This document shows positions 12,652-37,779 of a stretch of 64,000 bases of DNA, one piece after another. The DNA is taken from positions 310,001-374,000 of the forward strand of contig NZ_CP092519.1 of NCBI RefSeq assembly GCF_022430525.1, read 5' to 3'. Under the pieces are notes generated by a model. The model searched no databases. It saw nothing but the letters and a program-made list of their open reading frames with translations, and was not told where the DNA came from. A program made the translations under genes and the position numbers. The stretch is from Cetobacterium somerae. GTDB lineage: Bacteria; Fusobacteriota; Fusobacteriia; Fusobacteriales; Fusobacteriaceae. Each line of letters opens with the position of its first letter. The first letter of the stretch is position 1.

Positions 12652-12690
12652 ACTTATTTCTTAAATTTAAGGGATAAGTGTTTTTTTTTT
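12651..12690 (+). terminator. Expression-platform terminator of riboswitch copy 1
   Basis: CACTTATTTCTTAA pairs with TTAAGGGATAAGTG (14 bp with two G-U pairs) and is followed by ten T. Its 5' arm begins at the 3' end of the aptamer, as expected for a ligand-controlled terminator. Confidence 0.85.
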
Positions 12691-21430: not shown

Positions 21431-24214
21431 ATGCTAAAGGTTTTTATATTATGTTTTCTTTTGACTCAAATTTTATTAGCTGCTAGTTATATACCTAAAA
21501 ATATTAAAGAGGAAAAAATCTTAGAAAGTTATAGAGATACTCAATTAGTTTTAGGTTTAAAAGCAACAGACTTTGATAATACTATTATAGATAATCAATC
21601 ATTAAATACTATAGTAGAAGATTTATTTAAAAATTATTTACGTTTAAACATACGAGTAGTAAAGGGTAGTTGGGATGAACTACTATCAATGTACAGTAAA
21701 AAAGAGATTGATATTTTAGGATCTATAACTCAAAGTGAGGAAAGAAAAGAAAATAGTGTATTTAGCTTACCTCTATATGATGATTCAATCTATTTGGCTA
21801 CTTCAAATATAGAAAAATACAATTTGAAAGATTTAAAAAGCTTAAAAGAACAAGATATATTTGTTACAAAAGACTCTATTTATACAGGATACTTAAAAAA
21901 GTTTTTAAGAGGAAATGATATAAAAGTTAATATAATTGAAGTTGAAGATAGCTTTTTAGAAAAAGATGGAATATTCCTGACTTCTAAATACAATGTTGTA
22001 GGTTGGGAAAATACAATTAAAATAGGTTATCTTCCAGATATATCTATAGGGTTACAAAAAAAATTAAATGATTTAACTGCAATAGTAAATAATGCTCTTT
22101 TAGAGAAATATCAAGGTGATATTGCAAAATATTTAGAGAAACAATCCAATGTGATATATAAAAATAAATTTTTGAAATCTTTAACTCAAGAGGAGAGAAA
22201 ATATTTAGAAAACTTATCACAAATAACAATAGCCTTAGAACCTAATAATACTCTAAGTTATTATTCAAAAGATATGAAAAAATTTATTGGAGTTATTCCA
22301 TTTTTTATAGAAAGATTTTCTAAGAGAACGGGTATAAATTTTAAAATTGTAAATGATAGAAATAATAATTGGAATAATATATACAATGATTTTTTAGAGA
22401 AAAAAATTAGAGTAGTACCTCTTCCAGAAAATAAGGAATGGAGTGAGGATATTATTTTCACTGAACCGATATATAATCCTACGTTGTATAAAGTATCAAG
22501 TTTTTTTTCTCACAATACTAAAATAGGTGTTGTAAAAGGATCGATAGAGGAAAGTTTTGTCCAAGAGTATTATTTAAAAGATGATATATTATTTTATAAA
22601 GATTATGATGAATTAGAAAATTCTTTAAATAATTATACTATAAATGCAGCTTTTTTATTTGATATTAATAAAATGGATACTAGTAAATTTAAGGTTGATG
22701 AATTTATGAAAATTCCAATATCTCTAGGGTTATATAAAAGTGATGAAATATTAAAAGAGATAATAAATAAAGGGATAAAAAATGGTTTAAGTATAAGAAG
22801 AATAGAGGAAGAAGCAGATATAGTAAAAAAACAGGAAGCTTTTAATGAGTATCAAAGATTCCAATTAACTAATAAAATTTTATACTTATTACTAGCGATA
22901 TCTCTTATGTTTGGAATGATTTCTATATATAAAATGCTTTTGAATCATAAAATAACAAAAGAATTAAAAAAAGATTTAATTACATCTCTTCCAAATAGAG
23001 TAGAATTTCTAAATTTTATTGATGAGAAAAAAGAGTTAAAGGGCTATGCAATAGTGGTAGATATTAATAATTTTAAAGAGATAAACGATAAATATGGACA
23101 AAGTTCAGGAGACGATATTCTTAGAATAGTTGCAGATAAATTAAAAAGGATATTTATAAATCAAAATATTTATAGAGTTTCAGGAGATGAGTTTTATATT
23201 TTTAGTGAAGAAGAATTTTTAATTGAAAGATTAGAAGAATTAAAAAAAGAGATGCACTCTTTGAAGTTAAGTTATCAAGTAGATTTAAGTATAGGATTTT
23301 ATAAAAATTATAACAAAAATTTAGAAACATCTTTCAAATACGCATATATGGCAATGGAAGAGGTAAAGAAAAAAAATAATTTTTATTATGTTGAAGCAAC
23401 AGATGAGTTAATAGAAAAAAAAGAAAGAGAGTATTCGATAAAATCTCTTTTAAGAAATAAGAATTTAAGTGGATTATATGGAGTATATCAACCAAAATTT
23501 AATATAAAAAATAAAAATATTGTTGGTGCTGAAGTATTAGCGAGATGGAAAGATGAAAAGTTAGGTTTTATATCCCCAGGAGAGTTTATTCCCATAGCTG
23601 AAGAGATTAATTTAATACATTTAATAGACTACAAAATAGCGAATGAAGGAATAAAATTTATAAGTATTTTGAAAAAAAATAATTTAATTGATGAAAACTT
23701 TAGAATGTCTTTTAATCTATCAATGAAATCATTAGAAAGAGATGATGTTGTTTCAGTAGTCAAAGCTTTATTAAAAGAAAATAAAGTTTCAGGAGATTAT
23801 ATGGAGATTGAAATAACTGAATCCATCTTTTCAACAAATTTAAAAACAACATTAGAAAAAATAAACGAATTAAAAAAAATGAATATTTCTTTATCAATGG
23901 ATGACTTCACAGCAGGTCACTCTACAGTTAGCTTACTACCTATATTGCCTTTAGATGTAGTAAAGTTTGATAAAGGAATATTAGATGCTATTGGAACAAA
24001 AGGAGATTTAGTAGCATCAAATATATATATGGCTTTGATTGGGCTTATAAAGGATTTAAATCTTAAAATTGTATCAGAAGGAATAGAAACAAAGTTACAA
24101 CTAGAATTTTTAGAAAAAGCAAATGTTGATATTGGACAAGGATATATTTTTAGTAAACCTATAGAAGACCTGAATTTTATAAAAAAATTAACAGAAAAAA
24201 ATACAGGCTCTTAA
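21431..24214 (+). CDS. Membrane GGDEF-EAL protein with two periplasmic solute-binding (PBPb) sensor domains
   Basis: 927 residues. A signal sequence is followed by two tandem SBP family-3 type domains (about 40-235 and 260-470), one transmembrane helix (about 482-502), a GGDEF domain (about 515-655) and an EAL domain (about 670-920). The GGDEF signature reads RVSGDEF near residue 582, with Ser for the first Gly; such variants may or may not make cyclic di-GMP. The EAL domain has EVLARW in place of EALLRW and keeps the NLSMKSL, EITES, MDDFT, VKFDKG, SEGIET and QGYIFSKP motifs. The metal- and substrate-binding residues therefore look intact and phosphodiesterase activity is likely. It should couple an external small molecule to cyclic-di-GMP turnover and so to the two riboswitches in this window. 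Monocistronic. Confidence 0.92.
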   Translation: MLKVFILCFLLTQILLAASYIPKNIKEEKILESYRDTQLVLGLKATDFDNTIIDNQSLNTIVEDLFKNYLRLNIRVVKGSWDELLSMYSKKEIDILGSITQSEERKENSVFSLPLYDDSIYLATSNIEKYNLKDLKSLKEQDIFVTKDSIYTGYLKKFLRGNDIKVNIIEVEDSFLEKDGIFLTSKYNVVGWENTIKIGYLPDISIGLQKKLNDLTAIVNNALLEKYQGDIAKYLEKQSNVIYKNKFLKSLTQEERKYLENLSQITIALEPNNTLSYYSKDMKKFIGVIPFFIERFSKRTGINFKIVNDRNNNWNNIYNDFLEKKIRVVPLPENKEWSEDIIFTEPIYNPTLYKVSSFFSHNTKIGVVKGSIEESFVQEYYLKDDILFYKDYDELENSLNNYTINAAFLFDINKMDTSKFKVDEFMKIPISLGLYKSDEILKEIINKGIKNGLSIRRIEEEADIVKKQEAFNEYQRFQLTNKILYLLLAISLMFGMISIYKMLLNHKITKELKKDLITSLPNRVEFLNFIDEKKELKGYAIVVDINNFKEINDKYGQSSGDDILRIVADKLKRIFINQNIYRVSGDEFYIFSEEEFLIERLEELKKEMHSLKLSYQVDLSIGFYKNYNKNLETSFKYAYMAMEEVKKKNNFYYVEATDELIEKKEREYSIKSLLRNKNLSGLYGVYQPKFNIKNKNIVGAEVLARWKDEKLGFISPGEFIPIAEEINLIHLIDYKIANEGIKFISILKKNNLIDENFRMSFNLSMKSLERDDVVSVVKALLKENKVSGDYMEIEITESIFSTNLKTTLEKINELKKMNISLSMDDFTAGHSTVSLLPILPLDVVKFDKGILDAIGTKGDLVASNIYMALIGLIKDLNLKIVSEGIETKLQLEFLEKANVDIGQGYIFSKPIEDLNFIKKLTEKNTGS

Positions 24215-24233
24215 TAGAGACCTGTATTTTTTT
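24199..24233. terminator. Terminator overlapping the stop codon of the GGDEF-EAL gene
   Basis: ATACAGG ... CCTGTAT with inner TCT/AGA pairs, T run on the plus strand and a matching run on the minus strand; it also serves the convergent lipoprotein gene. Confidence 0.75.
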
Positions 24234-24267
24234 ATAACTGGAATATGTTGTTAAAAGAATTAAGTTC

Positions 24268-24603
24268 TTATTGAGCAGTTTTAGTTGTTGAATCAGGTGT
24301 TACAGCTTGAACTTGTTCCTCAACAGTTTCTTCTACTGCTTGAACGGGAGTTTTACCAGCAGCTTCTTCAGCAGCTTTAATCTCTGCAGGAGTAGCAGGA
24401 GTAACTTCCTCTACAACAGTTTCTTCAATAGCTTCAACTGGTTGGTTAGCGTTATCTGTAGTTTGAGAATCAACAGTTTGAGCTGGTTGAGCAAGATCAG
24501 TAGTCTGTACAGGTGGATTTGGATCATTAGGAGTTGTATCTTGTTTCTCTCCACAAGCCACCATTGCTAAAGATAAAGCTAACATAGCTAATAATTTTTT
24601 CAT
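24268..24603 (-). CDS. Small Thr/Gln/Glu/Pro-rich lipoprotein
   Basis: 111 residues. The signal peptide MKKLLAMLALSLAMVAC ends in a clear lipobox with the cysteine at residue 17, so the protein should be lipid-anchored. The mature part is low-complexity: Thr, Gln, Pro, Ala and Glu with repeated elements of the type AEEA, VEETV and EEQVQAV, and no globular domain is visible. It resembles the small spacer-like lipoproteins common in Fusobacterium genomes. The ATG lies behind GGAGAG, with a TATAAT-like -10 about 40 bases upstream. Function unknown. Confidence 0.8.
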   Translation of the reverse strand: MKKLLAMLALSLAMVACGEKQDTTPNDPNPPVQTTDLAQPAQTVDSQTTDNANQPVEAIEETVVEEVTPATPAEIKAAEEAAGKTPVQAVEETVEEQVQAVTPDSTTKTAQ

Positions 24604-24713
24604 AATTAATCTCTCCTTTTAAAATAAGTTATTTTTTCAACATATTATACTAAATAATAGAAGGGGTTCCTTCAAAAAAATAAAAAAAAAGTTGACTCAT
24701 GATTCAAAAGGTA

Positions 24714-24741
24714 TTTACTTTTTGAAAAAATGTGCTATACT
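24714..24741 (+). promoter_or_regulatory. Promoter of the EIIA-CBS/permease operon
   Basis: TTTACT (24714-24719) and TATACT (24736-24741), 16-base spacer. Confidence 0.55.
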
Positions 24742-24788
24742 AAAAATGAACAAAAGATAAATAAGTGTAAAAAAACGGAGGTGTTCCA

Positions 24789-25712
24789 ATGAAGCTGTCT
24801 AGCTATCTATCGGAAAAAGTAATTATTCCAAACATAAAAGGAAATAATATTAACGAATTGGTAGAAAATCTTTTAGATCAACTTGTTGAAAACAACAAAT
24901 CATTGAAAAATGAAAAAATGGTTATGAAAAAGGCTGTTCTAAAAAGAGAGGAAGAAGCATCAACATATTTAGGATATGGAGTTGCAGTACCACACGCAAG
25001 ATTAGAGCATTATGATGATATCTTAGTGGCAATAGGATTTCCAGAAAAACCAGTTATGGTAAAAACTATTGATAACAAAGAGGAAGAGTTAAAAATAGTT
25101 ATACTTGTAATAGCTGATGTTTTAAAAGGAAAAAAGATTCTGAAAATAATGTCAGGTATATCTAAATTAGCTATGAAAAACAAAGTTATTTTAGATAGAA
25201 TAATTGAGGAAAAAGATCCTGTTGAAACTATAAAAATATTAGAAGCTGCAAATATTGAAGTAGACCATAATATTACAGCAGAAGATTTAATGACTAATGT
25301 ACCAAAACCAGTAAAAGAAACTAATACATTAGAGGACATTGCAAAAATAATAATAATGGAAAAGGTTAGTGGAATTCCTGTGGTAGATAAGAATAATAAC
25401 TTTTTGGGAGAGATAACAGAAAGAGAGCTAATTGCATTTGGAATGCCTAAATACACAACTATTTTAAATGACTTAAACTTCATGACTGTGGGAGAGCCAT
25501 TTGAAAACTATCTAATAAATGAAAAAACAACAACAATAGAAGAGTTATATAGAAGAGAAGGAGTTGTAACAGTAGATAGAGAGGCTTCGTTAATGGAGGT
25601 ATCATATTTATTTATGAACCGTGGTGTTACTAGAATATATGTTGTTGAAAGTGGAAAGTATCTTGGAATTATTTTAAGATCAGATATTATAAGAAAAATA
25701 TTACATATATAA
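24789..25712 (+). CDS. Fusion of PTS EIIA (fructose/nitrogen type) with a CBS-domain pair
   Basis: 307 residues. Residues 1-150 match the EIIA-fru/PtsN fold with the phosphorylatable histidine in GVAVPHARLE (His69). Residues 160-307 form two CBS motifs (AEDLMTNVPKPVKETNTLEDIA with VSGIPVVDKNNNFLGEITERE, and VVTVDREASLMEVS with RIYVVESGKYLGIILRSDI), which bind adenosyl nucleotides in other proteins. No EIIB or EIIC accompanies it. The next gene, 17 bases downstream, is an ArsB/NhaD-type ion permease, so the fusion is probably a cytoplasmic regulatory subunit that links PTS phosphorylation state and nucleotide level to ion transport. That role is inference. ATG behind GGAGGTG. Confidence 0.85.
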   Translation: MKLSSYLSEKVIIPNIKGNNINELVENLLDQLVENNKSLKNEKMVMKKAVLKREEEASTYLGYGVAVPHARLEHYDDILVAIGFPEKPVMVKTIDNKEEELKIVILVIADVLKGKKILKIMSGISKLAMKNKVILDRIIEEKDPVETIKILEAANIEVDHNITAEDLMTNVPKPVKETNTLEDIAKIIIMEKVSGIPVVDKNNNFLGEITERELIAFGMPKYTTILNDLNFMTVGEPFENYLINEKTTTIEELYRREGVVTVDREASLMEVSYLFMNRGVTRIYVVESGKYLGIILRSDIIRKILHI

Positions 25713-25729
25713 GAAGGAAGTGAAGGTTT

Positions 25730-27007
25730 ATGTTAAGCTTAATATTAGGGCTTGGTATTTTTATAGCAGTGTTCTATTGTATCATAACAGAGAAGGTACC
25801 TGGAGCATGGGCAACAATGCTAGGTGGATTAGCTATGTCAATGGTAGGTATTTTTAATGAGGAACAAGCACTACACGCTATAGCAAGTAGATTAGAGATT
25901 TTATTTTTATTAATTGGTATGATGATAATAGTTCATCTTATATCTGAAACAGGAGTGTTCCAGTGGTTTGCTATTACATTAGCAAAATTTGTTAGAGGAG
26001 AACCGTTTTTACTTATAGTTTTCCTTGCAATAGTAACTGCAGTTTGTTCAGCGTTTTTAGATAACGTAACAACAATTTTACTAATGGCACCAATATCAAT
26101 ACTGTTAGCAGGGGAGTTAAAGTTAAATCCATTCCCATTTGTAATAACAGAGATAATGGCAGCAAATATAGGTGGTACAGCAACACTAATTGGAGACCCA
26201 ACACAACTGATCATAGGTCATGAAAGTGGATTAGGATTTAATGAATTTTTATTTAATACATCACCAGTTGCAATAATATCAATGGTAATATTACTAGCAA
26301 ATGTTTATTTCATCTATGGAAAAGATTTCCATGTTTCTACAGAGTTAAAAGCTAGAATTATGGAGATGAACCCAAGTAGAAGTTTAAAAGATAAAAAACT
26401 TTTAAGAGAAGCAGGAACAATTTTTGCATTAGTAATTCTTGGATTTGTATTAAATAACTTTATAAATAAAGGTCTTGCAATAATCTCTTTAAGTGGAGCA
26501 TTTTTACTTGTAACAATAGCAAAAAGAAAACCAGCAGATATATTTAAGCACGTAGAGTGGGATACTCTGTTCTTCTTTATTGGATTATTTATGATGGTAT
26601 TAGGAATCGAAAAAATAAATGTTATTGATATGGTTAGTGACAAGATGATTGCAGTAACTAAAGGAAACTTTGAGTTTGCAACAATGTCTATTATGACGTT
26701 ATCAGCATTATTCACATCAGTAATTGGAAACGTTGCTAACGCTGCAACAGTTTCAAAAATCATAGATGTTATGGCTCCTACATTTAAAGGAGTTCATACA
26801 GATGCACTTTGGTGGGCATTATCTTTTGGTTCGTGTTTAGGTGGAAACATCTCTATTCTTGGTTCTGCAACAAACGTAGTAGCAGTTGGTGTAGCAGGAA
26901 AATCAGGATGTAAAATAGATTTCGTAAAATTCTTAAAGTTTGGTGCATTAATAGCAATACAAACTTTAGTAGTAGCAGGAATATATCTAAAATTAAGATA
27001 TATGTAA
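25730..27007 (+). CDS. ArsB/NhaD-superfamily ion transporter (P-protein-like permease)
   Basis: 425 residues with about 11-12 hydrophobic segments. The two re-entrant signature loops of the ion-transporter superfamily are clear: FLDNVTTILLMAPISI in the first half with GGTATLIGDPTQLIIG, and in the second half VIGNVANAATVSKI with LGGNISILGSATNVVAVG. Family members exchange Na+/H+, or move arsenite or dicarboxylates across the inner membrane; the subgroup cannot be fixed from sequence reading. It is co-transcribed with the EIIA-CBS protein, which is probably its regulator. ATG behind GAAGGAAG. Confidence 0.85.
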   Translation: MLSLILGLGIFIAVFYCIITEKVPGAWATMLGGLAMSMVGIFNEEQALHAIASRLEILFLLIGMMIIVHLISETGVFQWFAITLAKFVRGEPFLLIVFLAIVTAVCSAFLDNVTTILLMAPISILLAGELKLNPFPFVITEIMAANIGGTATLIGDPTQLIIGHESGLGFNEFLFNTSPVAIISMVILLANVYFIYGKDFHVSTELKARIMEMNPSRSLKDKKLLREAGTIFALVILGFVLNNFINKGLAIISLSGAFLLVTIAKRKPADIFKHVEWDTLFFFIGLFMMVLGIEKINVIDMVSDKMIAVTKGNFEFATMSIMTLSALFTSVIGNVANAATVSKIIDVMAPTFKGVHTDALWWALSFGSCLGGNISILGSATNVVAVGVAGKSGCKIDFVKFLKFGALIAIQTLVVAGIYLKLRYM

Positions 27008-27043
27008 TATAAAAAATAATTGAAATACCCTCTAGTAAAAGAA

Positions 27044-27084
27044 GTAACAAAGGTATATAATAACTGAGCAAGTTATTTTGTTAC
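27044..27084 (+). promoter_or_regulatory. Nested inverted repeats around the -10 region of the NRAMP-like gene
   Basis: An outer pair GTAACAA (27044-27050) / TTGTTAC (27078-27084) encloses an inner pair AATAACT (27059-27065) / AGTTATT (27071-27077), all perfect. A TATAAT (27056-27061) lies inside. It could be an operator for a metal-responsive repressor or a transcript hairpin; no clear -35 box was found. Confidence 0.4.
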
Positions 27085-27105
27085 AATTTACGGAGGGATT
27101 TTTTT

Positions 27106-28305
27106 ATGAAAAATAATATGAGTTCAAAGAGTGGTGGTGCTGTTTTAGGTGCCGCTTTTTTAATGGCGATGTCAGCAGTAGGACCAGGCTTTTTGACTCA
27201 AGCATCAATTTTTACAGAACAATTTAAAGCTAACTTTGCATTTTCTATTTTGGTTTCAATAATTATAACTTTAATAGTTCAATTGAATATTTCTAGAATT
27301 ATTGGAGTTTCAGGATTAAGAGGGCAAGATTTAGCAAATAAAATTGTTCCAGGGTTAGGATATTTAATAGCGATATTGATTGTTTTAGGAGGCTTTGCTT
27401 TTAATATAGGAAATGTAGGTGGAGCAGCTCTAGGTTTAAATGTATTATTTGGAATTGATCTTACATATTCTGCGCTATTAGCAGGAGGAGTGGGAGCATT
27501 AATTTTTATTTCAAAAGATGCTGGAAAAATAATAGATAAATTTACTAAAATATTGGGTGTTTTAATGATTTTAGTAATATCTTACGTGGCTTTAGAGAGT
27601 AAGCCACCAATTTCAGAAGCAGCTTATAGTGCAGTATTTCCAGAGTCTTATGGAGATTTGAGTTTCTCATTATTGACTTTACTTGGTGGAACTATAGGAG
27701 GGTATATAATTTTTGCAGGAGGTCATAAGTTATTAGATGCAAATATTAAAGGAAAAGAAAATTTAAACAATATAGATAAAAGTTTGTTAATAGGTGTAAG
27801 TATAGCTTCAATTATAAGAATAGTTCTGTTTTTAGCTGTCTTAGGAGTGGTTTCAGCGGGAGCTACCTTAAATCCAGAGAATCCACCAGCTTCGGCTTTC
27901 ATGCAAGGGGCAGGAGTTGTAGGATATAAAATATTTGGAGTCGTTATATTAGCATCATCATTAGGAACTATAGTAGGTGCAGCGTATACATCAATTTCAT
28001 TTTTAAAGACACTTTTTCCAGTTGTTTTTCAACATGAAAAGGGATTTATAATAGGATTTATTCTATTATCAACATTGGTTATGGCAAGTATTGGAAAACC
28101 AGTTTCGTTATTGTTATTAGCAGGAGCTTTAAATGGTTTAATTTTACCAATAACTTTAGGAATAACACTGCTTGCTTCAAGAAAAAAAGAGATAGTAGGA
28201 GATTACAAACACTCAGTTATACTTACAATATTTGGAATAGCTATAGTTGTTATTATGGGATATGAAGGAATAATATCTCTTGGAAGTATAGCAGCGATAC
28301 TTTAA
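27106..28305 (+). CDS. NRAMP-related divalent metal/amino-acid-fold transporter (YcsG-like)
   Basis: 399 residues, about 11 transmembrane segments. The N-terminal helix contains SAVGPGFLTQASIFTEQF, where classical Mn/Fe NRAMP proteins have the metal-binding DPGN; here it is GPGF. This substitution is seen in the YcsG/NRAMP-related subgroup, so Mn or Fe transport should not be assumed. FAGGHKLLDA in the middle replaces the usual MPHNL-type motif. It lies 98 bases after the ArsB-type permease, behind its own nested inverted repeat and TATAAT, and ends in a strong terminator, so it may be an independent unit. ATG behind GGAGGG. Confidence 0.78.
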   Translation: MKNNMSSKSGGAVLGAAFLMAMSAVGPGFLTQASIFTEQFKANFAFSILVSIIITLIVQLNISRIIGVSGLRGQDLANKIVPGLGYLIAILIVLGGFAFNIGNVGGAALGLNVLFGIDLTYSALLAGGVGALIFISKDAGKIIDKFTKILGVLMILVISYVALESKPPISEAAYSAVFPESYGDLSFSLLTLLGGTIGGYIIFAGGHKLLDANIKGKENLNNIDKSLLIGVSIASIIRIVLFLAVLGVVSAGATLNPENPPASAFMQGAGVVGYKIFGVVILASSLGTIVGAAYTSISFLKTLFPVVFQHEKGFIIGFILLSTLVMASIGKPVSLLLLAGALNGLILPITLGITLLASRKKEIVGDYKHSVILTIFGIAIVVIMGYEGIISLGSIAAIL

Positions 28306-28337
28306 AAAAGAAGCTAGTTTACCTAGCTTCTTTTATT
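28306..28337. terminator. Terminator after the NRAMP-like gene
   Basis: AAAAGAAGCTAG / CTAGCTTCTTTT with a five-base loop; usable in both directions and shared with the convergent Rep-like gene. Confidence 0.85.
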
Positions 28338-28351
28338 ATATCTAAAAAATA

Positions 28352-29473
28352 TTAATTTTGAGTTTGGAAAATTTTGAAACTTCCACGATTTTCAATATAT
28401 GTTCCAAAGACAATATAATTTTCATCTCTATAAAAGAAAGTATCCCCCTCTTTAAATTCCTTAATATCTTTTAAAAATTTAAAATTTAAAGAGTAATAGA
28501 AGTTATAACCAATCATTATATTATAGATTGTCTTAGTAAAAGTTGTTACATCTTTGTATAAAGATACCTTCTCTTTAATAAGTGTATGGTTATTCAGTTG
28601 TAAAATCTCTTCAATGTTTTCACCTTTTCTTTTCAAATAGTTTATTAATTCATTATCTGAAAGAGTAAGATTATTTTCTTTTAAGAAAAGAATAGCTCTT
28701 TTACACTGAATAAATCCAATATCATTAATAGATGAGTTGATACTTTCCCAAATCTTTTTATAATCTTCAATATTACTTTTGATAAGCTGAATTAAATAGT
28801 TAGTTTCAGCACTTTTTTCAATAAGAGAGTTATTTTTTAAAATAAATTCAATAGCAGTAACTTTGTTATTTTTAGATTCTCCTTTTTTTATCTTATTATA
28901 AATAAGGGTGTAGTTTGAATAGGAGTTTATATTTTCTACTAAGGGTTTTAATAGTGCTTTTTCAAAATCAAAAAAACGATCATAAGCTTCTTCTTTTACA
29001 TTAAAGATATTTTTTAGCTCTTCAATACTTAAAACTAGATTTATATTTTCTGAGCTATTTTTTAAAACTAGATTAAAAAAATTATGTGAAGATTTTTGTC
29101 TAAAGTAAAAAAAGGTCTTTAAAGATAAAAAACTTTCAATACTATTTTTTTTAAAAGCATTAACTATCATAGGAGGGATGGTTATATAAAAAACATCATC
29201 AATTTTGCTAAAGTAACTAATATGAGGAAATTGTGAAAAAGTATTTTTATCATACTCATCAATGAACGAATAAGAGATATATTTAGTCATAAGTCCATTG
29301 AGAGCTTCTATAACATCTTGAGAGTCTAATTTTTTAAATTCTTTAGACTCTAAGATAATAGTTTCTTTTAAATCACTGTTTACTTTATTTAATATGTTTA
29401 AAAAAATGGTATTTTCAATTTTAGAAGTTCTCGTATTAAAGATAATATTTTGGTTAGAAATTTTAAAACTCAA
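28352..29473 (-). CDS. Rep_3 (RepB)-family replication initiator-like protein
   Basis: 373 residues. The two winged-helix architecture of plasmid initiators is visible. The stretch LVLSIEELKNIFNVKEEAYDRFFDFEKALLKPLVENIN followed by YTLIYNKIKKG and VTAIEFILK matches the conserved WH1 end of the Rep_3 family. The region before it (FYITIPPMIVNAFKKNSIESFLSLKTFFYFRQ) fits the typical 'leysLkS.ya.rlYel' segment. The C-terminus (residues 230-373) is unlike standard Rep proteins. Nearby plasmid genes (parA, mobilisation) are absent. It is divergent from a fructose PTS gene, with two copies of a 15-base direct repeat in between. Either this replicon is a plasmid or chromid, or the Rep fold has been taken over as a regulator. 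ATG behind GGAGG. Confidence 0.7.
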   Translation of the reverse strand: MSFKISNQNIIFNTRTSKIENTIFLNILNKVNSDLKETIILESKEFKKLDSQDVIEALNGLMTKYISYSFIDEYDKNTFSQFPHISYFSKIDDVFYITIPPMIVNAFKKNSIESFLSLKTFFYFRQKSSHNFFNLVLKNSSENINLVLSIEELKNIFNVKEEAYDRFFDFEKALLKPLVENINSYSNYTLIYNKIKKGESKNNKVTAIEFILKNNSLIEKSAETNYLIQLIKSNIEDYKKIWESINSSINDIGFIQCKRAILFLKENNLTLSDNELINYLKRKGENIEEILQLNNHTLIKEKVSLYKDVTTFTKTIYNIMIGYNFYYSLNFKFLKDIKEFKEGDTFFYRDENYIVFGTYIENRGSFKIFQTQN

Positions 29474-29530
29474 TATATAACCTCCGTTAAAAAAAATTTT
29501 TAATTTTTTTTACATATTTTATCATGAAAA

Positions 29531-29545
29531 TAGACGAAACAAAAT
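29531..29545 (+). repeat. Direct repeat, copy 1 (iteron- or operator-like)
   Basis: TAGACGAAACAAAAT, in the intergenic region between the Rep-like gene and the PTS gene. The second copy lies 52 bases downstream. Distinct from the surrounding A/T background because of the GACG core. Confidence 0.55.
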
Positions 29546-29582
29546 ATAAAAAATAGATAATAAAAAAATAAAAATTATATTA

Positions 29583-29597
29583 TAGACGAAACAAAAA
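29583..29597 (+). repeat. Direct repeat, copy 2 (iteron- or operator-like)
   Basis: TAGACGAAACAAAAA, matching copy 1 at 14 of 15 positions and lying just upstream of the PTS promoter. The 52-base period is about five helical turns, so both copies face the same side of the DNA. Confidence 0.55.
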
Positions 29598-29613
29598 TTT
29601 AAAAATAGCAAAT

Positions 29614-29643
29614 TTGACAGAAAAAAGTAAAATAATGTATAGT
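29614..29643 (+). promoter_or_regulatory. Promoter of the fructose-type PTS gene
   Basis: TTGACA (29614-29619) and TATAGT (29638-29643) with an 18-base spacer. Confidence 0.65.
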
Positions 29644-29679
29644 GAGACCATAAGACAAAGAAAATAAGGGAGTGAAAAA

Positions 29680-31497
29680 ATGTTAGAAAAAAAGTATATA
29701 AAACTAAAACTAACAGGTAAAACAAAAGATGAGATACTACAAGAGCTTGTAGATGTTTTAGATAATGGTGGGGCATTAGAAAATAAGGATGAGTTTTTAA
29801 AAGTTGTAAAGGCTAGAGAGGCTACATCATCAACAGGATTAGAAGAGGGAATTGCAATTCCTCATGGAAAAACAAAGGCAGTGAAAAAACCAGCGGTAGC
29901 TTTTGGAAGATCAGAAGGAGTGGACTTTAATTCTTTAGATGGAGAGCCATCAAAACTATTCTTTATGATAGCAGCTCCAGAAGATGCAACAGATTCTCAT
30001 ATAGAAACATTATCGAAGTTAACAAATAAACTTTTAGATGATGAAGTAAGAGAAAAGTTAGAAAATGCTAAAACAGAGGATGAAATTTTAAATATATTAA
30101 ATGAAGAGAAAAAAGAGACTGTAAAATCTGTAGAATCAAGAGATGGTTATGTGGTTGCTGTAACAGCTTGTCCAGTAGGAATTGCTCATACATACATGGC
30201 AGCTGATTCTTTAGTAAATAAAGGTAAAGAGTTAGGAGTAGAGATAAAAGTTGAAACAAATGGAAGCGTTGGAGTTAAAAATGAATTGACAGCTGAAGAT
30301 ATAAAAAGAGCTACAGGAGTTATAGTTGCAGCAGATAAGACAATAGATATGGATAGATTTGCAGGTAAAAAAGTTATTCAAGTTCCAGTAAAACAAGCTA
30401 TAAGAGCTCCAAAAGAGTTAATTGAAAAGACACTAAATGGAGAGGGAGAAATCTATAAATCTTCTTCTAATGGGAAAAAAGAAGTTCCAAAAAATGAAAA
30501 AACTGGAATTTATAAACATCTAATGAATGGTGTTTCTCATATGTTACCATTAGTAGTATGTGGAGGAGTTTTAATAGCTCTTTCAATAGCATTATCAGGA
30601 ATAAAAGCAGGATCAGGAGCAGATGTAACAAATCCATTCTTTAAATCGATGTTAGATTTAGGAGTTGCAGCATTTGGACTTATGATACCAATTCTTTCAG
30701 GGTATATAGCGATGAGTATAGCGGATAGACCAGGACTTGCTCCAGGACTTGTTGGTGGTGCTTTAGCAAATACAGTTGGAGCAGGATTTTTAGGTGGTAT
30801 GGTTGCCGGTTTCGCTGCAGGATATATAGCTAAATGGGTAAAATCATGGAATGTTCCAGAGGGATTAAAGCCAATTATGCCAATATTTGTAATACCTTTA
30901 GTTTCAACATCTTTAGTTGGAGTTATAATGTATTTCATAGGTGCACCTATTAGTGGATTTATGAATATGTTAACAGATGTATTAAAAGGAATGGAAGCAG
31001 GATCAGTGTTTTTAGCACTTATTTTAGGATGTATGATTTCTTTTGATATGGGTGGACCAATAAATAAAGTTGCATTCCTATTTGGTTCAGCAATGATAAC
31101 TCAAGGAGTTCCAACAGTGATGGGACCAATTGCAGTTGCAATTTGTATTCCACCAATTGGTATGGGAATAGCAACAATGATGGCACCTAAGAACTATGAA
31201 GTTGGAGAAAGAGAAGCTGGAAAAGCAGCTTTTGCAATGGGATTAATTGGAATCACAGAAGGAGCGATACCATTTGCTGCAGCAGATCCATTTAGAGTTA
31301 TTCCATCTATAATGGTTGGAAGTGGAGTTGGAGCAGTTATAGCGGCAATAGGAAAAGTTGCGGATCATGCACCTCATGGAGGACCAATAGTATTACCAGT
31401 AGTAGACAATAAGTTAATGTTTATTATTGCGATTGTAGTAGGATCTCTGATAAGTGCAATAATGGTAAATATTTTAAAGAAATTTAAGAAACAGTAG
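29680..31497 (+). CDS. Fructose-family PTS permease, EIIA-EIIB-EIIC fusion
   Basis: 605 residues in the order A-B-C. EIIA (1-150) has the phosphorylatable histidine in GIAIPHGKT (His62). EIIB (about 155-255) has VTACPVGIAHTYMAAD with the phospho-cysteine Cys164. EIIC (about 275-605) has some eight or more hydrophobic segments, the DMGGPINKVAF motif and GITEGAIPFAAADP. It should import and phosphorylate a fructose-type sugar, possibly fructose, mannose or a mannosyl compound, using phosphoenolpyruvate via HPr. No fructose-1-phosphate kinase gene is adjacent, so the substrate is uncertain. ATG behind AAGGGAG, promoter with TTGACA upstream, and two direct repeats that may be operator sites. Confidence 0.93.
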   Translation: MLEKKYIKLKLTGKTKDEILQELVDVLDNGGALENKDEFLKVVKAREATSSTGLEEGIAIPHGKTKAVKKPAVAFGRSEGVDFNSLDGEPSKLFFMIAAPEDATDSHIETLSKLTNKLLDDEVREKLENAKTEDEILNILNEEKKETVKSVESRDGYVVAVTACPVGIAHTYMAADSLVNKGKELGVEIKVETNGSVGVKNELTAEDIKRATGVIVAADKTIDMDRFAGKKVIQVPVKQAIRAPKELIEKTLNGEGEIYKSSSNGKKEVPKNEKTGIYKHLMNGVSHMLPLVVCGGVLIALSIALSGIKAGSGADVTNPFFKSMLDLGVAAFGLMIPILSGYIAMSIADRPGLAPGLVGGALANTVGAGFLGGMVAGFAAGYIAKWVKSWNVPEGLKPIMPIFVIPLVSTSLVGVIMYFIGAPISGFMNMLTDVLKGMEAGSVFLALILGCMISFDMGGPINKVAFLFGSAMITQGVPTVMGPIAVAICIPPIGMGIATMMAPKNYEVGEREAGKAAFAMGLIGITEGAIPFAAADPFRVIPSIMVGSGVGAVIAAIGKVADHAPHGGPIVLPVVDNKLMFIIAIVVGSLISAIMVNILKKFKKQ

Positions 31498-31526
31498 TTT
31501 AAACTTATTAATATATTGATGAAATA

Positions 31527-31573
31527 AAACTCCCATGATACTATTTAATAAAAAAGTACGTGGGAGTTTTTTT
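31527..31573 (+). terminator. Terminator whose 3' arm contains the ribosome-binding site of the next gene
   Basis: AAAACTCCCATG (31527-31538) pairs with CGTGGGAGTTTT (31559-31570, one G-U pair). An inner TACT/AGTA pairing extends the stem, and a T run leads directly to the ATG at 31574. The GGGAG used as Shine-Dalgarno is buried in the stem. Confidence 0.75.
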
Positions 31574-32527
31574 ATGAGAAAAAGGATATTAAAAAGTATA
31601 ATTCAAGTTATACCAGTATTTATAATTGGTGGAATTTTATCAGTAATATCGTTATATACAGATAATCAATTTTTAAAAGATTTAAGTGGATATAGTTTTT
31701 TAATGGCACCACCTCTTTTAGCAGCATACATAGCAAAAGAGATAGCTGGAAGTGTAGGATTTATTCCTGGAATTATTTTAGGATATTTGTCTGGTGCAAT
31801 TGGTCTTGGAATGTTTGGAGGAATATTAGTTGGGGTAGTTTTAGGGTATTTTATAAATACTTTAAAAAAAATAGAGATATCTATAGAAGTTTCTTCAATA
31901 ATGTATTTAGTAATAATTCCAATACTTTCAACTCTAGTTGTAGGAATGGGCTTTTATTATATTTTCCAAGGACCAATGAAATTTATATTAGATGAACTTG
32001 GGATCTATTTAAATAGTTTAGATGATAAGAATAATGTATTTTTAAATTTTGTTTTAGGTGGACTTATAGGAGTAGATTTAGGAGGACCAATAAATAAAGT
32101 GGCATATGTTTATGCTGTAAATACTATTGAGTATGGCAGAGGAGATATAATGGGACCAATAGCAGTGGCTATTTCAACTCCTCCTTTAGCTTTGGGATTA
32201 TCACAGTTTATATTAAAAAATAGATTTTCTAAAACTGAGAGAGAAGCGGGAGTAATATCTATACTTTTAGGGTTTTTAGGGATTACAGAGGGAGCACTAT
32301 TATTTTTAACAAGAGATATTTCTGTATTACCAACAACTGTTATTGGAGCAGCAATAGGTGCTGGAGCAGCATCGATATTAGGGGTAAAATCAATAGTACC
32401 TCATGGAGGTATTATAATATTACCATTAATAGAAAATAAAATAGGCTTTTTAATAGCATTATCAATAGGTGTAGCATCAACAATATTTATGTTGTATTTT
32501 TTAAAAAAAGGGGAGAGCAATGGATAG
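31574..32527 (+). CDS. Stand-alone fructose-type PTS EIIC-like membrane protein
   Basis: The start is the ATG at 31574 with GGGAG at 31562-31566; this shortens the longest frame by 13 residues that would lie in the terminator loop. The product has 317 residues and the same landmarks as the EIIC part of the upstream gene: GVDLGGPINKVAYVYA, GPIAVAISTPPLALG, GITEGALLFLTRD and the PHGGI segment. It has no EIIA or EIIB of its own. It may form a pore with the upstream EIIA-EIIB, act as a facilitator, or be a regulatory relic; this cannot be decided here. Its ribosome-binding site lies inside the terminator stem of the preceding gene, so expression is probably low or conditional. The GNAT gene overlaps its end by 8 bases. 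Confidence 0.82.
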   Translation: MRKRILKSIIQVIPVFIIGGILSVISLYTDNQFLKDLSGYSFLMAPPLLAAYIAKEIAGSVGFIPGIILGYLSGAIGLGMFGGILVGVVLGYFINTLKKIEISIEVSSIMYLVIIPILSTLVVGMGFYYIFQGPMKFILDELGIYLNSLDDKNNVFLNFVLGGLIGVDLGGPINKVAYVYAVNTIEYGRGDIMGPIAVAISTPPLALGLSQFILKNRFSKTEREAGVISILLGFLGITEGALLFLTRDISVLPTTVIGAAIGAGAASILGVKSIVPHGGIIILPLIENKIGFLIALSIGVASTIFMLYFLKKGESNG

Positions 32528-33077
32528 AAGCGTAGAAAATATACATCTGATTATGACTAAAGAGAATTTAGATTTTAATGAAAAACAACTTCCAGAGGGA
32601 TATGAGTTTGTAATGTATGAATCAGGAATGATGAATAAATGGATTGAAATTCAACTTTCATCTAAGCATATACTTGAAAGACTTGAAGGAGAAAACTATT
32701 TTAAAGATGTATTCTTAAAAAATGAAAATTTTTTAAAAGAAAGTATGATTTTTATTAAGGATAGTAAAGGAGACTTAGTAGGAACAGGGGCTATTTGGGA
32801 GGGAAAGTATTTTCCACAAGATAAAAATAAAAGTTATAGATTACATTGGATTGCAGTAGATCCAAAACATGGTGGAAAAGGGTTAGCAAAAGCTATAGTA
32901 TCAAAACTACTTTCAATATTTAAAGATAAAAAAATGGGAGAGGGATTATATCTCTCCACACAAACATGTAGCTATGTAGCTATAAAAATATATTTAGACT
33001 TTGGCTTTAAACCCTATGATTTAGAAAAAAATCAAAAAGGTTGGGATATAGTTTTCAATAAAATTAATGTTCAATAA
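32520..33077 (+). CDS. GNAT-family N-acetyltransferase
   Basis: 185 residues. The acetyl-CoA binding core is in LHWIAVDPKHGGKGLAKAIVSKLLS (the R/Q-x-x-G-x-G/A loop reads HGGKGLA), followed by GLYLSTQTCSYVAIKIYLDFGF, the usual C-terminal strand and helix. The N-terminal part (LPEGYEFVMYESGMMNKWIEIQL) is typical of stand-alone GNAT enzymes acting on small molecules. The substrate is unknown. It starts inside the end of the EIIC-like gene behind GGGGAGAG, so the two are translationally coupled. Its 3' end overlaps the 3' end of the HD-GYP gene on the opposite strand by 14 bases, with no terminator between them. Confidence 0.85.
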   Translation: MDRSVENIHLIMTKENLDFNEKQLPEGYEFVMYESGMMNKWIEIQLSSKHILERLEGENYFKDVFLKNENFLKESMIFIKDSKGDLVGTGAIWEGKYFPQDKNKSYRLHWIAVDPKHGGKGLAKAIVSKLLSIFKDKKMGEGLYLSTQTCSYVAIKIYLDFGFKPYDLEKNQKGWDIVFNKINVQ

Positions 33078-35187
33078 AAATTTTATTAAATTCTTCATTG
33101 TAAGCTAAAAAAATATCAACAAGAGTGGGGTCAAAGTGTTGTCCACGCTCTTTTTTTATTATTTCAACAGCTTCTTCATGAGAAAAACCGTCTTTGTAAA
33201 CTCTTTTTTGACGCAAAGCATCATAAACATCTGCTATAGCTACAATTCTAGCCTCTAAAGGTATTTCATTTTCTTTTAAACCATAACAGTATCCTTTTCC
33301 ATTCCATTTTTCATGATGATAGAGAGCTATATTTTCAGCAACAGCTCCAAGTTGCATTTTATCAATAAGTTTTTTTCCTAAAAGAACATGTTTTTTCATT
33401 TCTTCAAATTCGTAAGGAGATAGCTTTCCTGGTTTTTTTAAAATTGAATCAGGAATTCCAATTTTACCAATATCGTGAAGTGAAGCATATTCACTAATCT
33501 CTTTAATAAATTTTTTATGACATTTTAGCTTTTCAGCTAAAAATTTCGAATAAAAGTTAACTCTTAGGATATGATTTCCAGTATCTTCATCATTTAATTC
33601 ATTGGCAGCTTCAAAGCTTTCAACTAATGCTCTAGTTATTAAACGCTCTTTCTTAGTAGCAATAGTAGCTTTTCTTAAAAAATAAAAAAGAGTTAGAATA
33701 ATTATAGAAGACATGGAAAACATAATTATAAAATATTTATAATTAGGAGATAATTTTTTAGGTATAACTAATTCACTATAAAGAATCCTGCTTTCAGATA
33801 GATGACTAGGAAAAAGTTTATCTATAAAATCAGCTAAATCAGAATCATTTTTTACTCCAAATCCAACGGGAGTAATTTTATTAAAAAATCCAGCAACTTT
33901 TATCTCATTTTCTAAATATTCATTAGAGATAGACATAGATATGATTTTAAAGTCTCCATAAAGATAATCAATCTCTTTATTTAAAAGTGCATTTAAAGCT
34001 GATTTTGTACTTTTAAAAAATTTAAAATCGTTCGATGTAATTATTTTTTTTATAGAATTTTTATTTAATTCTTCTGAAGAGATAAATCCAATTTTTTTAT
34101 TTTTAATATCTGAATAAGAATCGATAAAATTATTATTTGTAAGAGTAAAAGCAGCTAATTGAGATTCATAATATGGAATAAAAAATTTATTTTTTAGATT
34201 AAATAAATCTGTGTCAATAGCTTTAATATCATAGTTATCGTTAGGACTTTGGATATAATTGATAGGAATATCAGTTAAATAAGATAATTCTTTAAGGCGA
34301 TCAATAACATATCCATGATAACTTCCTTTAGATAGATAAAGAAGCGGAACTATTTCATTATTTGTGGGCAGTAAAACTTTAAGTTGCTTGTATCTATGTT
34401 TTAATTTATCAATAAGTGGGTCATTTTTTAAAAGTTGTTTATAAAAAATAAGACGTTCTTTTTTTAAGGAATCTACAACATATTTCTCAGAAAAATTAAT
34501 TTGAAAGTTTTCAATAATATCTTTTAACATGGGATATTTTTTATTTACAACTAACCAAAGTTGTGACGATGGAATATTTTTTAAAGGAATAAAATTATAA
34601 TTTTTAAAAACATCATTACTACTTTTGCCGATAATAGCATCTATTTTGTTATTTTCTAATGATGAAAAACCAAAATTACCATTATCTTCAATAGATATTA
34701 AATTTTTTAAATCTGGATAAAACTCTTTAGTTAATATAGAATCAGAAGTTCCATCAATATGACCAATTTTAAATTTATTTAGATTATTTAAATCTAAAGA
34801 TTTATTTTTCTTTGTAAATAAACCGACATTATACGTATTATAAGTTGGAATAAAAAAATAATTTTTTTCTCTTTCGGGAGTTTTCGCAACATTAAAAAGA
34901 ATATCTCCATCTCCATTTTTTAATAAATTTTTCATTTTCATTTTATTAGTTGATTGTATTTTAAATCTTAATCCAGTTTCTTGTTCTAGTTTTTCAAAAA
35001 ACTCCATATAAACGCCAGCTAATTCACCAGAATTTTTTTGATATAAATAGACATGGTTTGGATGGTATATATCAATTAAAAATATTCTATTTTTATTATT
35101 TTTAATCCATAATTTTTCATCTTTTGAAAATTCAAATGGGAATATATTTAAAAAAATGAGAAAAAAAAGAAAAAAAGATTTAATCAA
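33064..35187 (-). CDS. Membrane HD-GYP phosphodiesterase with two periplasmic solute-binding sensor domains
   Basis: 707 residues, starting at a TTG (35187) behind GGGGAGG. A signal sequence precedes two SBP family-3-like domains (about 25-235 and 255-475), a transmembrane helix (about 480-500) and an HD-GYP domain (about 515-700). The HD pair is in SLHDIGKIGIPDSIL (about residue 568). The second signature reads HHEKWNGKGYCYGL, with GYC where the family has GYP. The DVYDAL segment and the other metal ligands are present, so hydrolysis of cyclic di-GMP is expected, though the GYC change might alter it. The overall layout mirrors the GGDEF-EAL protein at 21431. Its start lies about 200 bases from the cyclic-di-GMP riboswitch of the pilus operon, in divergent orientation, which suggests local control of that operon. 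Confidence 0.9.
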   Translation of the reverse strand: MIKSFFLFFLIFLNIFPFEFSKDEKLWIKNNKNRIFLIDIYHPNHVYLYQKNSGELAGVYMEFFEKLEQETGLRFKIQSTNKMKMKNLLKNGDGDILFNVAKTPEREKNYFFIPTYNTYNVGLFTKKNKSLDLNNLNKFKIGHIDGTSDSILTKEFYPDLKNLISIEDNGNFGFSSLENNKIDAIIGKSSNDVFKNYNFIPLKNIPSSQLWLVVNKKYPMLKDIIENFQINFSEKYVVDSLKKERLIFYKQLLKNDPLIDKLKHRYKQLKVLLPTNNEIVPLLYLSKGSYHGYVIDRLKELSYLTDIPINYIQSPNDNYDIKAIDTDLFNLKNKFFIPYYESQLAAFTLTNNNFIDSYSDIKNKKIGFISSEELNKNSIKKIITSNDFKFFKSTKSALNALLNKEIDYLYGDFKIISMSISNEYLENEIKVAGFFNKITPVGFGVKNDSDLADFIDKLFPSHLSESRILYSELVIPKKLSPNYKYFIIMFSMSSIIILTLFYFLRKATIATKKERLITRALVESFEAANELNDEDTGNHILRVNFYSKFLAEKLKCHKKFIKEISEYASLHDIGKIGIPDSILKKPGKLSPYEFEEMKKHVLLGKKLIDKMQLGAVAENIALYHHEKWNGKGYCYGLKENEIPLEARIVAIADVYDALRQKRVYKDGFSHEEAVEIIKKERGQHFDPTLVDIFLAYNEEFNKIFIEH

Positions 35188-35379: not shown

Positions 35380-35390
35380 AGTATTTCAAA

Positions 35391-35455
35391 TACGGCAAAC
35401 TGTAGGAAACTGCAGGACGCAAAGCTATAGGGCCTCTAAAATGGCAGCCAGTTGC
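35391..35455 (+). promoter_or_regulatory. Cyclic-di-GMP-I (GEMM) riboswitch aptamer, copy 2
   Basis: All core elements of copy 1 recur: GGCAAAC, a helix CTGTAG-GAAA-CTGCAG, GGACGCAAAGC, GGGCC, ATGGCAGCC and GTTGC. Compared with copy 1 the unpaired core is identical, while the tetraloop helix differs at four pairs: three changed on both strands and one that becomes a G-U wobble. This is direct evidence for a conserved RNA structure. It leads the chaperone/pilin/usher/adhesin operon that begins at 35582. The stretch 35188-35350 upstream shows only A/T-rich sequence. Confidence 0.92.
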
Positions 35456-35498
35456 ACTTATCTTTTGTAAATTAGATTACAAAGGCTAAGTGTTTTTT
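35455..35498 (+). terminator. Expression-platform terminator of riboswitch copy 2
   Basis: CACTTATCTTTTGTAA pairs with TTACAAAGGCTAAGTG (one wobble, one mismatch), six-base loop, then seven T. As in copy 1, it starts at the last base of the aptamer, although the stem sequence has diverged. Confidence 0.85.
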
Positions 35499-36374: not shown

Positions 36375-36953
36375 ATGAAAAAAGTTTTATTCGGAATCAT
36401 GGCATTATCAATTGCAGCATTTGCAGCAAATCCAGGGACAGATAGCGAAGCATCAGTACCAGTAAAGGTAATAGCTGAGATAATCACTGCACCTACAGGA
36501 CTTACTATAACTGATGAGGCAGGAACAGTTATTGATGAATTATTATTAGACCACGGAAGAATAGTTAAAGGTGCGGCAACAAGTGATTCAGTAGCATACA
36601 AACTATTTAAAGTTCAAAGATTTGATGGAACTAAACCTACAAAAATTGGTGCAGGAACTTTAAATGTAAAATTAGATGAGGCAACAACAACATTAGCAAA
36701 AAATGGAACTTCAACTGCAAGCACACTAACATCAGCATTAACTTTAACTGGTGGAGCAACTCAAGTGTCTTCAAAAGAATATACTCATACTACTGGAGCT
36801 GATGATACAGAGCACGTAGGAAGAGTAACATCAACTATAGCTAAAACTGAATTATTAAAAACTGGGATAGAAACAGGTATTCACCACAACTCAAGAGAAA
36901 GAACTTTAACTGTTGTTTATACACCAGCAAAACCAACAGAAGGAGGAAAATAA
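36375..36953 (+). CDS. Putative major pilin-like subunit
   Basis: 192 residues, signal peptide cleaved near AAFAA. The mature start (ASVPVKVIAEIITAPTGLTITDEAG) resembles the donor strand and first strands of alternate chaperone-usher pilins such as CFA/I major subunits, which begin with a VTVTA-type segment. The rest is Thr/Ala-rich and beta-rich, with no cysteines, and ends ERTLTVVYTP plus a short tail, as expected for a subunit that ends in a beta strand. It lies between two chaperone-like genes and is followed by a terminator, an arrangement that makes the major subunit the most abundant product. Ribosome-binding site TAGGAGG. Identification rests on position and pattern; homology was not tested. 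Confidence 0.6.
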   Translation: MKKVLFGIMALSIAAFAANPGTDSEASVPVKVIAEIITAPTGLTITDEAGTVIDELLLDHGRIVKGAATSDSVAYKLFKVQRFDGTKPTKIGAGTLNVKLDEATTTLAKNGTSTASTLTSALTLTGGATQVSSKEYTHTTGADDTEHVGRVTSTIAKTELLKTGIETGIHHNSRERTLTVVYTPAKPTEGGK

Positions 36954-37761: not shown

Positions 37762-37779
37762 TTAAAGGAGGTGTTATTC

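What the first reader, a model, noticed from the sequence alone, without database searches (positions are those of the whole stretch)
21431..35187. Two cyclic-di-GMP enzymes sharing the same twin periplasmic sensor design
The GGDEF-EAL protein (21431) and the HD-GYP protein (33064) both have two tandem solute-binding-type domains before one transmembrane helix. They would read external solutes and act on the messenger that the two riboswitches bind. The HD-GYP gene starts about 200 bases from riboswitch copy 2. All parts of a local circuit are within 25 kb.
Basis: partly seen in the sequence, partly recalled or inferred. Interest (0 to 1): 0.65.

Follow-up and report, generated by a model that had tools for sequence, protein, structure and literature searches.

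The report
Twin-flytrap c-di-GMP enzymes in Cetobacterium
Two sensor enzymes for a bacterial second messenger lie near two RNA switches that read it, as reported, but the neighbourhood looks incidental; a sister enzyme elsewhere in the same genome is built into a switch-controlled pilus operon that is shared across the bacterial family.

Summary
GGDEF-EAL 21431-24214 and HD-GYP 33064-35187 each carry two Venus-flytrap (SBP_bac_3-type) domains, then one transmembrane helix. Two c-di-GMP-I riboswitches lie at 12580 and 35384, the latter 197 bp from the HD-GYP start but divergent from it. The host is a Cetobacterium.

A private local circuit is not supported. The genome holds 8 riboswitches and 15 c-di-GMP enzyme genes, 7 with this sensor design. 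None of the 8 orthologues of the window HD-GYP has a riboswitch within 1.5 kb. In four other Cetobacterium genomes the same riboswitch-pilus operon exists but is not next to that gene.

A sister gene does have the wiring. Of 53 twin-sensor HD-GYP genes in 61 genomes, 24 have a same-strand riboswitch directly upstream (0.07 expected). Many sit in a conserved operon: riboswitch, (pilin), HD-GYP, SBP_bac_5 protein, DUF4402 pilin, usher-like protein, chaperone. This genome's copy is at C1:605386-612579. All eight riboswitches here are predicted ON switches, so c-di-GMP would induce its own phosphodiesterase. 44 of 143 family riboswitches precede c-di-GMP enzyme genes, although reviews call this rare. 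Nothing here has been tested experimentally.

The parts
12580..12655 (+). c-di-GMP-I riboswitch aptamer, copy 1 (G at the position before GCAAA)
   Evidence: Rfam RF01051, 60.0 bits
12650..12690 (+). intrinsic terminator whose 5' arm reuses the last 6 nt of the aptamer (GCACTT)
12774..13064 (+). 96-aa MarR-type winged-helix protein, the gene behind riboswitch 1; the same pair is found in 9 of 12 Cetobacterium genomes
21431..24214 (+). GE927: twin-flytrap sensor, TM, GGDEF (SGDEF), EAL (EVL)
21503..22795 (+). GE927 tandem flytrap domains (about residues 25-455)
   Evidence: model; one search matches to 4q0c, 9ilw, 5gzs
22865..22921 (+). GE927 transmembrane helix (residues 479-497)
22973..23377 (+). 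GE927 GGDEF domain, motif SGDEF
23471..24160 (+). GE927 EAL domain, motif EVL
33064..35187 (-). HD707: twin-flytrap sensor, TM, HD-GYP
33763..35124 (-). HD707 tandem flytrap domains (about residues 22-475)
   Evidence: model
33673..33741 (-). HD707 transmembrane helix (residues 483-505)
33121..33585 (-). HD707 HD-GYP domain (HDIGKIGIP ... HHEKWNGKGYCYG)
35384..35459 (+). c-di-GMP-I riboswitch aptamer, copy 2
   Evidence: Rfam RF01051, 58.6 bits
35454..35500 (+). intrinsic terminator whose 5' arm reuses the last 6 nt of aptamer 2
35582..36307 (+). PapD-like chaperone, first gene behind riboswitch 2 (below the Pfam cut-off)
36375..36953 (+). 192-aa secreted protein, putative pilus subunit (no family match)
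37033..37761 (+). second chaperone-like protein
37771..40437 (+). 888-aa usher-like outer-membrane protein (no match to a known usher family)
41502..47891 (+). 2129-aa secreted protein that follows the usher-like gene in the riboswitch-2 pilus operon of relatives too
48035..51598 (+). 1187-aa protein that lies near HD-GYP in G005 and G006 without riboswitch 2
51613..63540 (+). 3975-aa protein with about 25 DUF7927/DUF11 repeats

Best explanation
The two proteins are members of a lineage-wide set of twin-flytrap c-di-GMP receptors: 7 of the 15 c-di-GMP enzyme genes of this Cetobacterium. Periplasmic solutes, probably amino-acid-like or peptide-like, close the flytraps, and the signal crosses one helix to the output domain. 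HD707 is a phosphodiesterase. GE927 has the SGDEF/EVL motif pair of the bifunctional V. cholerae receptor MbaA and may make or degrade c-di-GMP depending on ligand. Both feed a shared pool of c-di-GMP that eight riboswitches read. These are predicted ON switches: ligand binding holds back aptamer bases that the terminator needs. High c-di-GMP therefore switches on pilus-type operons (riboswitch 2 and others), a MarR-type regulator (riboswitch 1) and, at other loci, c-di-GMP enzymes themselves. The directly wired loop is not in the window. It is at C1:605386, where a riboswitch drives the sister enzyme HD718 as first gene of a pilus operon, so c-di-GMP induces its own ligand-gated phosphodiesterase together with the pilus. 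Shown by computation: domains, folds, motifs, gene order, conservation, terminator overlap. Inferred: catalytic activity, ligands, ON logic, pilus function, feedback.
For: Domains and folds. HD-GYP metal-site residues H539, H571, D572, K575, H600, H624, H625, D653 are invariant in 27 sequences (their role is recalled). SGDEF 584 and EVL 701 are the motifs of MbaA, for which papers report both activities (PMC8079147, PMC8967002; passages). Genome counts are 8 riboswitches, 11 GGDEF, 5 EAL and 4 HD_5. Of 53 twin-sensor HD-GYP genes, 24 have a same-strand riboswitch within 1.5 kb upstream, 0.074 expected. SBP_bac_5 is within 1 kb of 23 of 53, and an usher-like gene within 10 kb of 25 of 53. Window-HD clade: 9 genes, branch starred, none with a same-strand riboswitch. 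All 8 riboswitches of this genome have a terminator overlapping the aptamer 3' end. 28 of 143 riboswitches have a c-di-GMP enzyme as first gene and 16 more later in the same-strand run.
Against: In copies 1 and 2 the terminator shares only the last 6 nt of the Rfam model, and the minimum-energy fold keeps the P2 and P3 helices together with the terminator. So the ON reading rests on one ligand-contacting C (recalled) and on the copies with 9-19 nt overlap (L002, L003, L007). No obvious P1 helix was found by eye. Among the 29 sampled riboswitches of relatives, 15 show no genuine overlapping terminator. Papers report class I switches of both signs (PMC6366702 passages). HD-GYP of the window reads GYC instead of GYP. 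The usher-like protein matches no usher family.
Confidence: 0.68

Rival explanations
1. One reading: GE927, HD707 and the two riboswitches form a dedicated local circuit in which external solutes tune just these two riboswitches.
For: All four lie within 22.9 kb. HD707 is 197 bp from riboswitch 2. The rotation test gives 204 of 5000. Twin-sensor HD-GYP genes are linked to riboswitch-pilus operons elsewhere. HD-GYP orthologues in G005 and G009 also face a chaperone-usher-like cluster.
Against: None of the other 8 genes in the HD707 clade has a riboswitch within 1.5 kb. The riboswitch-2 operon lies elsewhere in G004, G006, G008 and G010. HD-GYP is truncated in G004. Housekeeping genes fill the interval. 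The messenger diffuses.
Confidence: 0.12
2. The riboswitches are OFF switches, so HD707 and HD718 activity would raise pilus expression, and HD718 would be in a positive rather than a negative loop.
For: The class I switches of C. difficile are OFF (PMC11477304 and PMC6366702 passages). P2/P3 and the terminator can coexist in the minimum-energy fold.
Against: All 8 terminators of this genome reuse aptamer 3' bases, by 6-19 nt. No separate anti-terminator was seen in copies 1 and 2 by eye.
Confidence: 0.2
3. GE927 and HD707 are degenerate receptors: their GGDEF/EAL or HD domains bind nucleotide but do not turn it over, and signal by protein contact.
For: SGDEF instead of GGDEF, GYC instead of GYP. 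The GE927 orthologue looks frameshifted in G009.
Against: Metal-site residues of the HD domain are invariant. EAL motif residues are present in GE927. MbaA with the same motif pair is reported active.
Confidence: 0.15

Closest known systems
CdgH of Vibrio cholerae (tandem PBPb diguanylate cyclase)
   Same: two tandem periplasmic SBP_bac_3-type domains ahead of a c-di-GMP output (PMC5431781 abstract); 5gzs, probably this protein (my inference), aligns to HD707 residues 33-472 with Z 17.7 over 401 residues at rmsd 7.1
   Different: CdgH is a diguanylate cyclase; here the outputs are GGDEF-EAL and HD-GYP, and the ligand is unknown
NspS-MbaA of Vibrio cholerae
   Same: SGDEF and EVL motifs as in GE927; a separate periplasmic binding protein paired with a c-di-GMP receptor resembles the SBP_bac_5 gene beside HD718
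   Different: MbaA has no tandem flytraps as far as I recall; no binding-protein gene lies beside the window's two enzymes
BvgS/EvgS tandem Venus-flytrap sensor kinases
   Same: tandem flytrap periplasmic part followed by one helix
   Different: output is a kinase cascade (recalled), not c-di-GMP turnover
RmcA of Pseudomonas aeruginosa
   Same: SBP_bac_3 sensor on a c-di-GMP enzyme (7ejg, Z 20.7 over 221 residues, rmsd 3.0; PMC8846402 section 10)
   Different: single flytrap and PAS domains in RmcA (recalled)
c-di-GMP-I (GEMM-I) riboswitches of C. difficile and V. cholerae
   Same: same aptamer family, upstream of surface-structure genes
   Different: [quoted passage not shown] here 44 of 143 do, directly or within the same-strand run

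Membership tests
c-di-GMP-I riboswitch | covariance-model match above gathering score | tested here: met
   60.0 and 58.6 bits, cut-off 35
c-di-GMP-I riboswitch | G at the specificity position (A there in cGAMP-type GEMM-Ib) | tested here: met
   G in copies 1 and 2; A in 1 of the 8 copies of this genome, C3:123236 (rule from PMC6456294 passages)
c-di-GMP-I riboswitch | regulates its gene in response to c-di-GMP | not testable with these tools
   needs transcription assay
HD-GYP phosphodiesterase | HD_5/HD domain above cut-off | tested here: met
   115.2 bits, cut-off 27.2
HD-GYP phosphodiesterase | metal-binding H/D residues | tested here: met
   invariant in 27 sequences
HD-GYP phosphodiesterase | GYP motif | tested here: not met
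   GYC in HD707; GYP in HD718 and HD692. Not a metal ligand as recalled; so HD707 is described as an HD-GYP-type enzyme with a variant motif, which works like one rather than strictly fitting the motif
bifunctional GGDEF-EAL enzyme | both domains above cut-off | tested here: met
   68.1 and 165.2 bits
bifunctional GGDEF-EAL enzyme | canonical GG(D/E)EF active site | tested here: not met
   SGDEF; an SGDEF enzyme, MbaA, is reported active, so the function claim stays open
tandem Venus-flytrap sensor (BvgS/CdgH type) | two flytrap folds in series ahead of a TM helix | tested here: met
   models and matches over both domains
tandem Venus-flytrap sensor (BvgS/CdgH type) | ligand binding that alters output | not testable with these tools
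   needs binding assay
chaperone-usher pilus system | usher family match (888-aa protein) | tested here: inconclusive
   no usher family match in Pfam, NCBIfam or PDB sequences; fold not predicted
chaperone-usher pilus system | PapD-type chaperone | tested here: inconclusive
   window protein 18.6 bits, below the cut-off of 23; homologue in G005 30.6 bits, above it

The most novel reading that the evidence does not exclude
In Fusobacteriaceae the c-di-GMP-I riboswitch has been turned into a classical metabolite-feedback switch. It drives a ligand-gated phosphodiesterase (twin-flytrap HD-GYP) in one operon with an extra SBP_bac_5 binding protein and a usher-like pilus system. Each such pilus operon thereby carries its own solute-gated off-timer: c-di-GMP switches on the pilus and, with it, the enzyme that removes c-di-GMP when the binding protein and flytraps report the right periplasmic solute. 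HD707 of the window would be a copy uncoupled from the riboswitch.
Probability: 0.4. Interest if true: 0.68.

Novelty: new variant of a known kind. Interest (0 to 1): 0.45.

Why it matters
[quoted passage not shown] Here about a third of the family's riboswitches do, and one conserved operon couples riboswitch, solute-gated phosphodiesterase, binding protein and pilus. If true, it gives a compact system in which feedback on a second messenger by RNA can be measured directly. It would also give Fusobacteriaceae, where F. nucleatum is reported to lack these domains (PMC5478684 passage), a worked-out c-di-GMP regulon. For the window itself the value is mainly corrective: nearness on the map is not wiring.

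Tried and rejected
Considered and rejected: (a) riboswitch 2 regulating HD707 - opposite strands, divergent. (b) GE927 belonging to a conserved riboswitch operon - only 1 of 34 twin-sensor GGDEF-EAL genes has an upstream same-strand riboswitch within 1.5 kb, and it is not the window's. (c) GE927-HD707 linkage as a conserved pair: G008 and G012 also show a GGDEF-EAL gene about 9.4 kb from the HD-GYP gene, but that gene belongs to the GE923 clade, so it is no evidence for the window pair.

Rows dropped: for the 53 HD-GYP genes I kept rows whose match starts at query residue 100 or earlier. Left out were HD-only proteins and truncated or broken copies (for instance G004:C162, G060:C308, G058:C2:1558493, G007:C52, G001:C8), and one search did not list its weakest matches. 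For the 34 GGDEF-EAL genes I kept rows that run from the sensor to the EAL end. For ushers I kept 91 rows and left out its short or weak rows. The tree holds 27 of the HD-GYP genes and that holds 17 sensor-GGDEF genes, those for which loci were in hand. G042's riboswitch (29.9 bits) is below the cut-off; it is in the 144 but not in the 143. In one search the printed count 24 of 37 includes two artefacts (L046, L047: the hairpin found is the aptamer itself), so I use 22 of 37; 5 had a separate hairpin and 8 none. The 37 are the 8 own copies plus 29 for which one search gave loci, of 144. Relatives are not independent: many are one genus.

Literature: 10 searches. None of the listed titles or start-of-abstract texts describes the riboswitch-HD-GYP-pilus operon, and 'Cetobacterium' with 'c-di-GMP' gave 3 listed papers, none on this subject by title. 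Subscription journals are mostly outside the library.

Absence told here: no usher among sequence matches; the usher-like protein was not folded.

Full report
WHAT IS THERE. The window is part of contig C1 (310001-374000) of a 2.97-Mb genome. Its HD-GYP protein is 78% identical to one in an uncultured Cetobacterium MAG, so the host is a Cetobacterium. ORFs 21431-24214 (+) and 33064-35187 (-) carry GGDEF+EAL and HD_5 domains, each with one Pfam SBP_bac_3 hit. AlphaFold2 models from alignments of 17 and 27 sequences (mean pLDDT 85.5 and 85.2) and structure matches show a second flytrap in each. The whole sensor regions match BvgS 4q0c, EvgS 9ilw and 5gzs. The two sensor regions are remote homologues of each other: profile probability 99.7, 17% identity over 485 columns; plain BLASTP is marginal, E 0.002 over 163 positions. 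Two c-di-GMP-I riboswitches are present.

The genome holds 8 such riboswitches, 11 GGDEF, 5 EAL and 4 HD_5 domains, which makes 15 genes. Seven of them have the twin-flytrap plan: GE927, GE923, GE924, GG647, HD707, HD718, HD692. The riboswitch targets in this genome are: a GGDEF gene (GG647) and, 2.1 kb on, a GGDEF-EAL gene (GE448), each with its own riboswitch; HD718; three DUF4402 pilin-like genes; a single DUF4402 gene; the window pilus-type operon; a MarR-type protein; and a large surface-type protein.

TEST OF THE LOCAL CIRCUIT. In 61 genomes of the family I kept 53 twin-sensor HD-GYP genes. The clade of the window gene has 9 members, on a starred branch. Only the window gene has a riboswitch within 1.5 kb, and it is divergent; distances in the others are 6 kb, 19-22 kb, 211 kb, or none on the contig. 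The riboswitch-2 pilus operon is found in G004 (C10), G006 (C49), G008 (C4, 1.1 Mb from the HD-GYP gene) and G010 (C19), not beside the HD-GYP gene as far as contigs show. In G006 HD-GYP faces the 1187-aa protein directly. In G005 a different usher-like operon lies in between. In G004 only the HD half of the gene remains. The site next to HD-GYP therefore changes its pilus operon between species. Riboswitch 1 keeps its MarR-type gene in 9 of 12 Cetobacterium genomes and lies 7.9-8.8 kb from the GGDEF-EAL orthologue wherever both are on one contig (6 of 6), together with the spermidine, LemA and DUF2207 genes in between in the four relatives examined in full.

WHERE THE WIRING IS REAL. Of the 53 HD-GYP genes, 24 have a riboswitch on the same strand within 1.5 kb upstream; 0.074 would be expected by chance. 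Gaps are mostly 50-182 bp, or 561-840 bp where a pilin gene comes first. In 23 of 53 an SBP_bac_5 gene follows within 1 kb, and in 25 of 53 a usher-like gene lies within 10 kb. Conversely 23 of 31 strong SBP_bac_5 relatives lie beside such an HD-GYP gene. The operon order read directly in G005, G024 and G032 is riboswitch, (pilin), HD-GYP, SBP_bac_5, DUF4402-type, usher-like, about 300-aa protein, with a chaperone next in G005 and G024; this genome's copy is C1:605386-612579 as far as fetched. Over the family, 28 of 143 riboswitches have a c-di-GMP enzyme as first gene, 16 more have one later in the same-strand run, 41 lead to pilus-type genes, 9 to the MarR-type gene, 45 to other genes, 2 to no same-strand gene, and 2 end at a contig edge. 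[quoted passage not shown] another says the class was found upstream of some such genes (PMC12564702). So the kind is known, and the scale and the operon look new.

SWITCH LOGIC. Each of the 8 riboswitches of this genome is followed by a terminator whose 5' arm includes 6 to 19 nt of the aptamer 3' end. The overlap includes the C that, as I recall from the Vc2 crystal structures, contacts the ligand. Binding and termination should then exclude each other: an ON switch. The evidence is weaker for copies 1 and 2, where only 6 nt overlap and the other helices coexist with the terminator in the predicted fold. Among all 37 sampled, 22 show a genuine overlap.

ENZYMES. HD707 keeps the metal-site residues but reads GYC for GYP. 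GE927 has SGDEF and EVL, the pair found in MbaA, which papers describe as making c-di-GMP with one polyamine and degrading it with another (PMC8079147, PMC8967002; passages). The ligands are unknown. An arginine at the place where amino-acid-binding proteins hold the carboxylate (recalled) is nearly invariant in GE927 relatives (R105) and is not among the conserved columns of the HD-GYP set, so the two sensors probably read different things.

VERDICT. The parts are real and ordinary in kind; the local circuit is not supported; the sister locus is a conserved, riboswitch-driven, presumably solute-gated phosphodiesterase in a pilus-type operon. That operon is the result worth following.

Noticed in passing
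G000:C3:123236-123311 (L008); also L050 in G002: This riboswitch has A where the others have G just before GCAAA, the change that marks cGAMP-type GEMM-Ib switches in Geobacter (PMC6456294 passages). It precedes a large surface-type protein gene.
   Followed up: partly
G000:C1:1012958-1016594 (L029): Two riboswitches in series, one ahead of a twin-sensor GGDEF gene (SGDEF) and one ahead of a GGDEF-EAL gene in which no GGDEF motif was found.
   Followed up: partly
L274:13045-13767 (G004) and L275:2774-3496 (G008): The riboswitch-2-type pilus operon is followed, in these relatives, by a 240-aa stand-alone EAL gene on the same strand.
   Followed up: partly
L033:9643-11109: SBP_bac_5 binding protein with no transporter gene seen beside it, conserved next to twin-sensor HD-GYP genes.
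   Followed up: partly
window 9166-15979: Four large HTH-containing regulator genes of similar size (464-483 aa) flank riboswitch 1 and its MarR-type gene.
   Followed up: no
window 53342-61783 (-): A 2813-aa open frame runs antisense inside the 3975-aa DUF11-repeat protein gene; probably a by-product of the repeats.
   Followed up: no
window 28352-29473 (-): Protein with a Rep3_C (plasmid initiator) domain on the chromosome, kept at this place in relatives.
   Followed up: no
L007:837-1011 (-), G000:C4: Cobalamin riboswitch, 111 bits, about 0.5 kb from a c-di-GMP-I riboswitch on the other strand.
   Followed up: no
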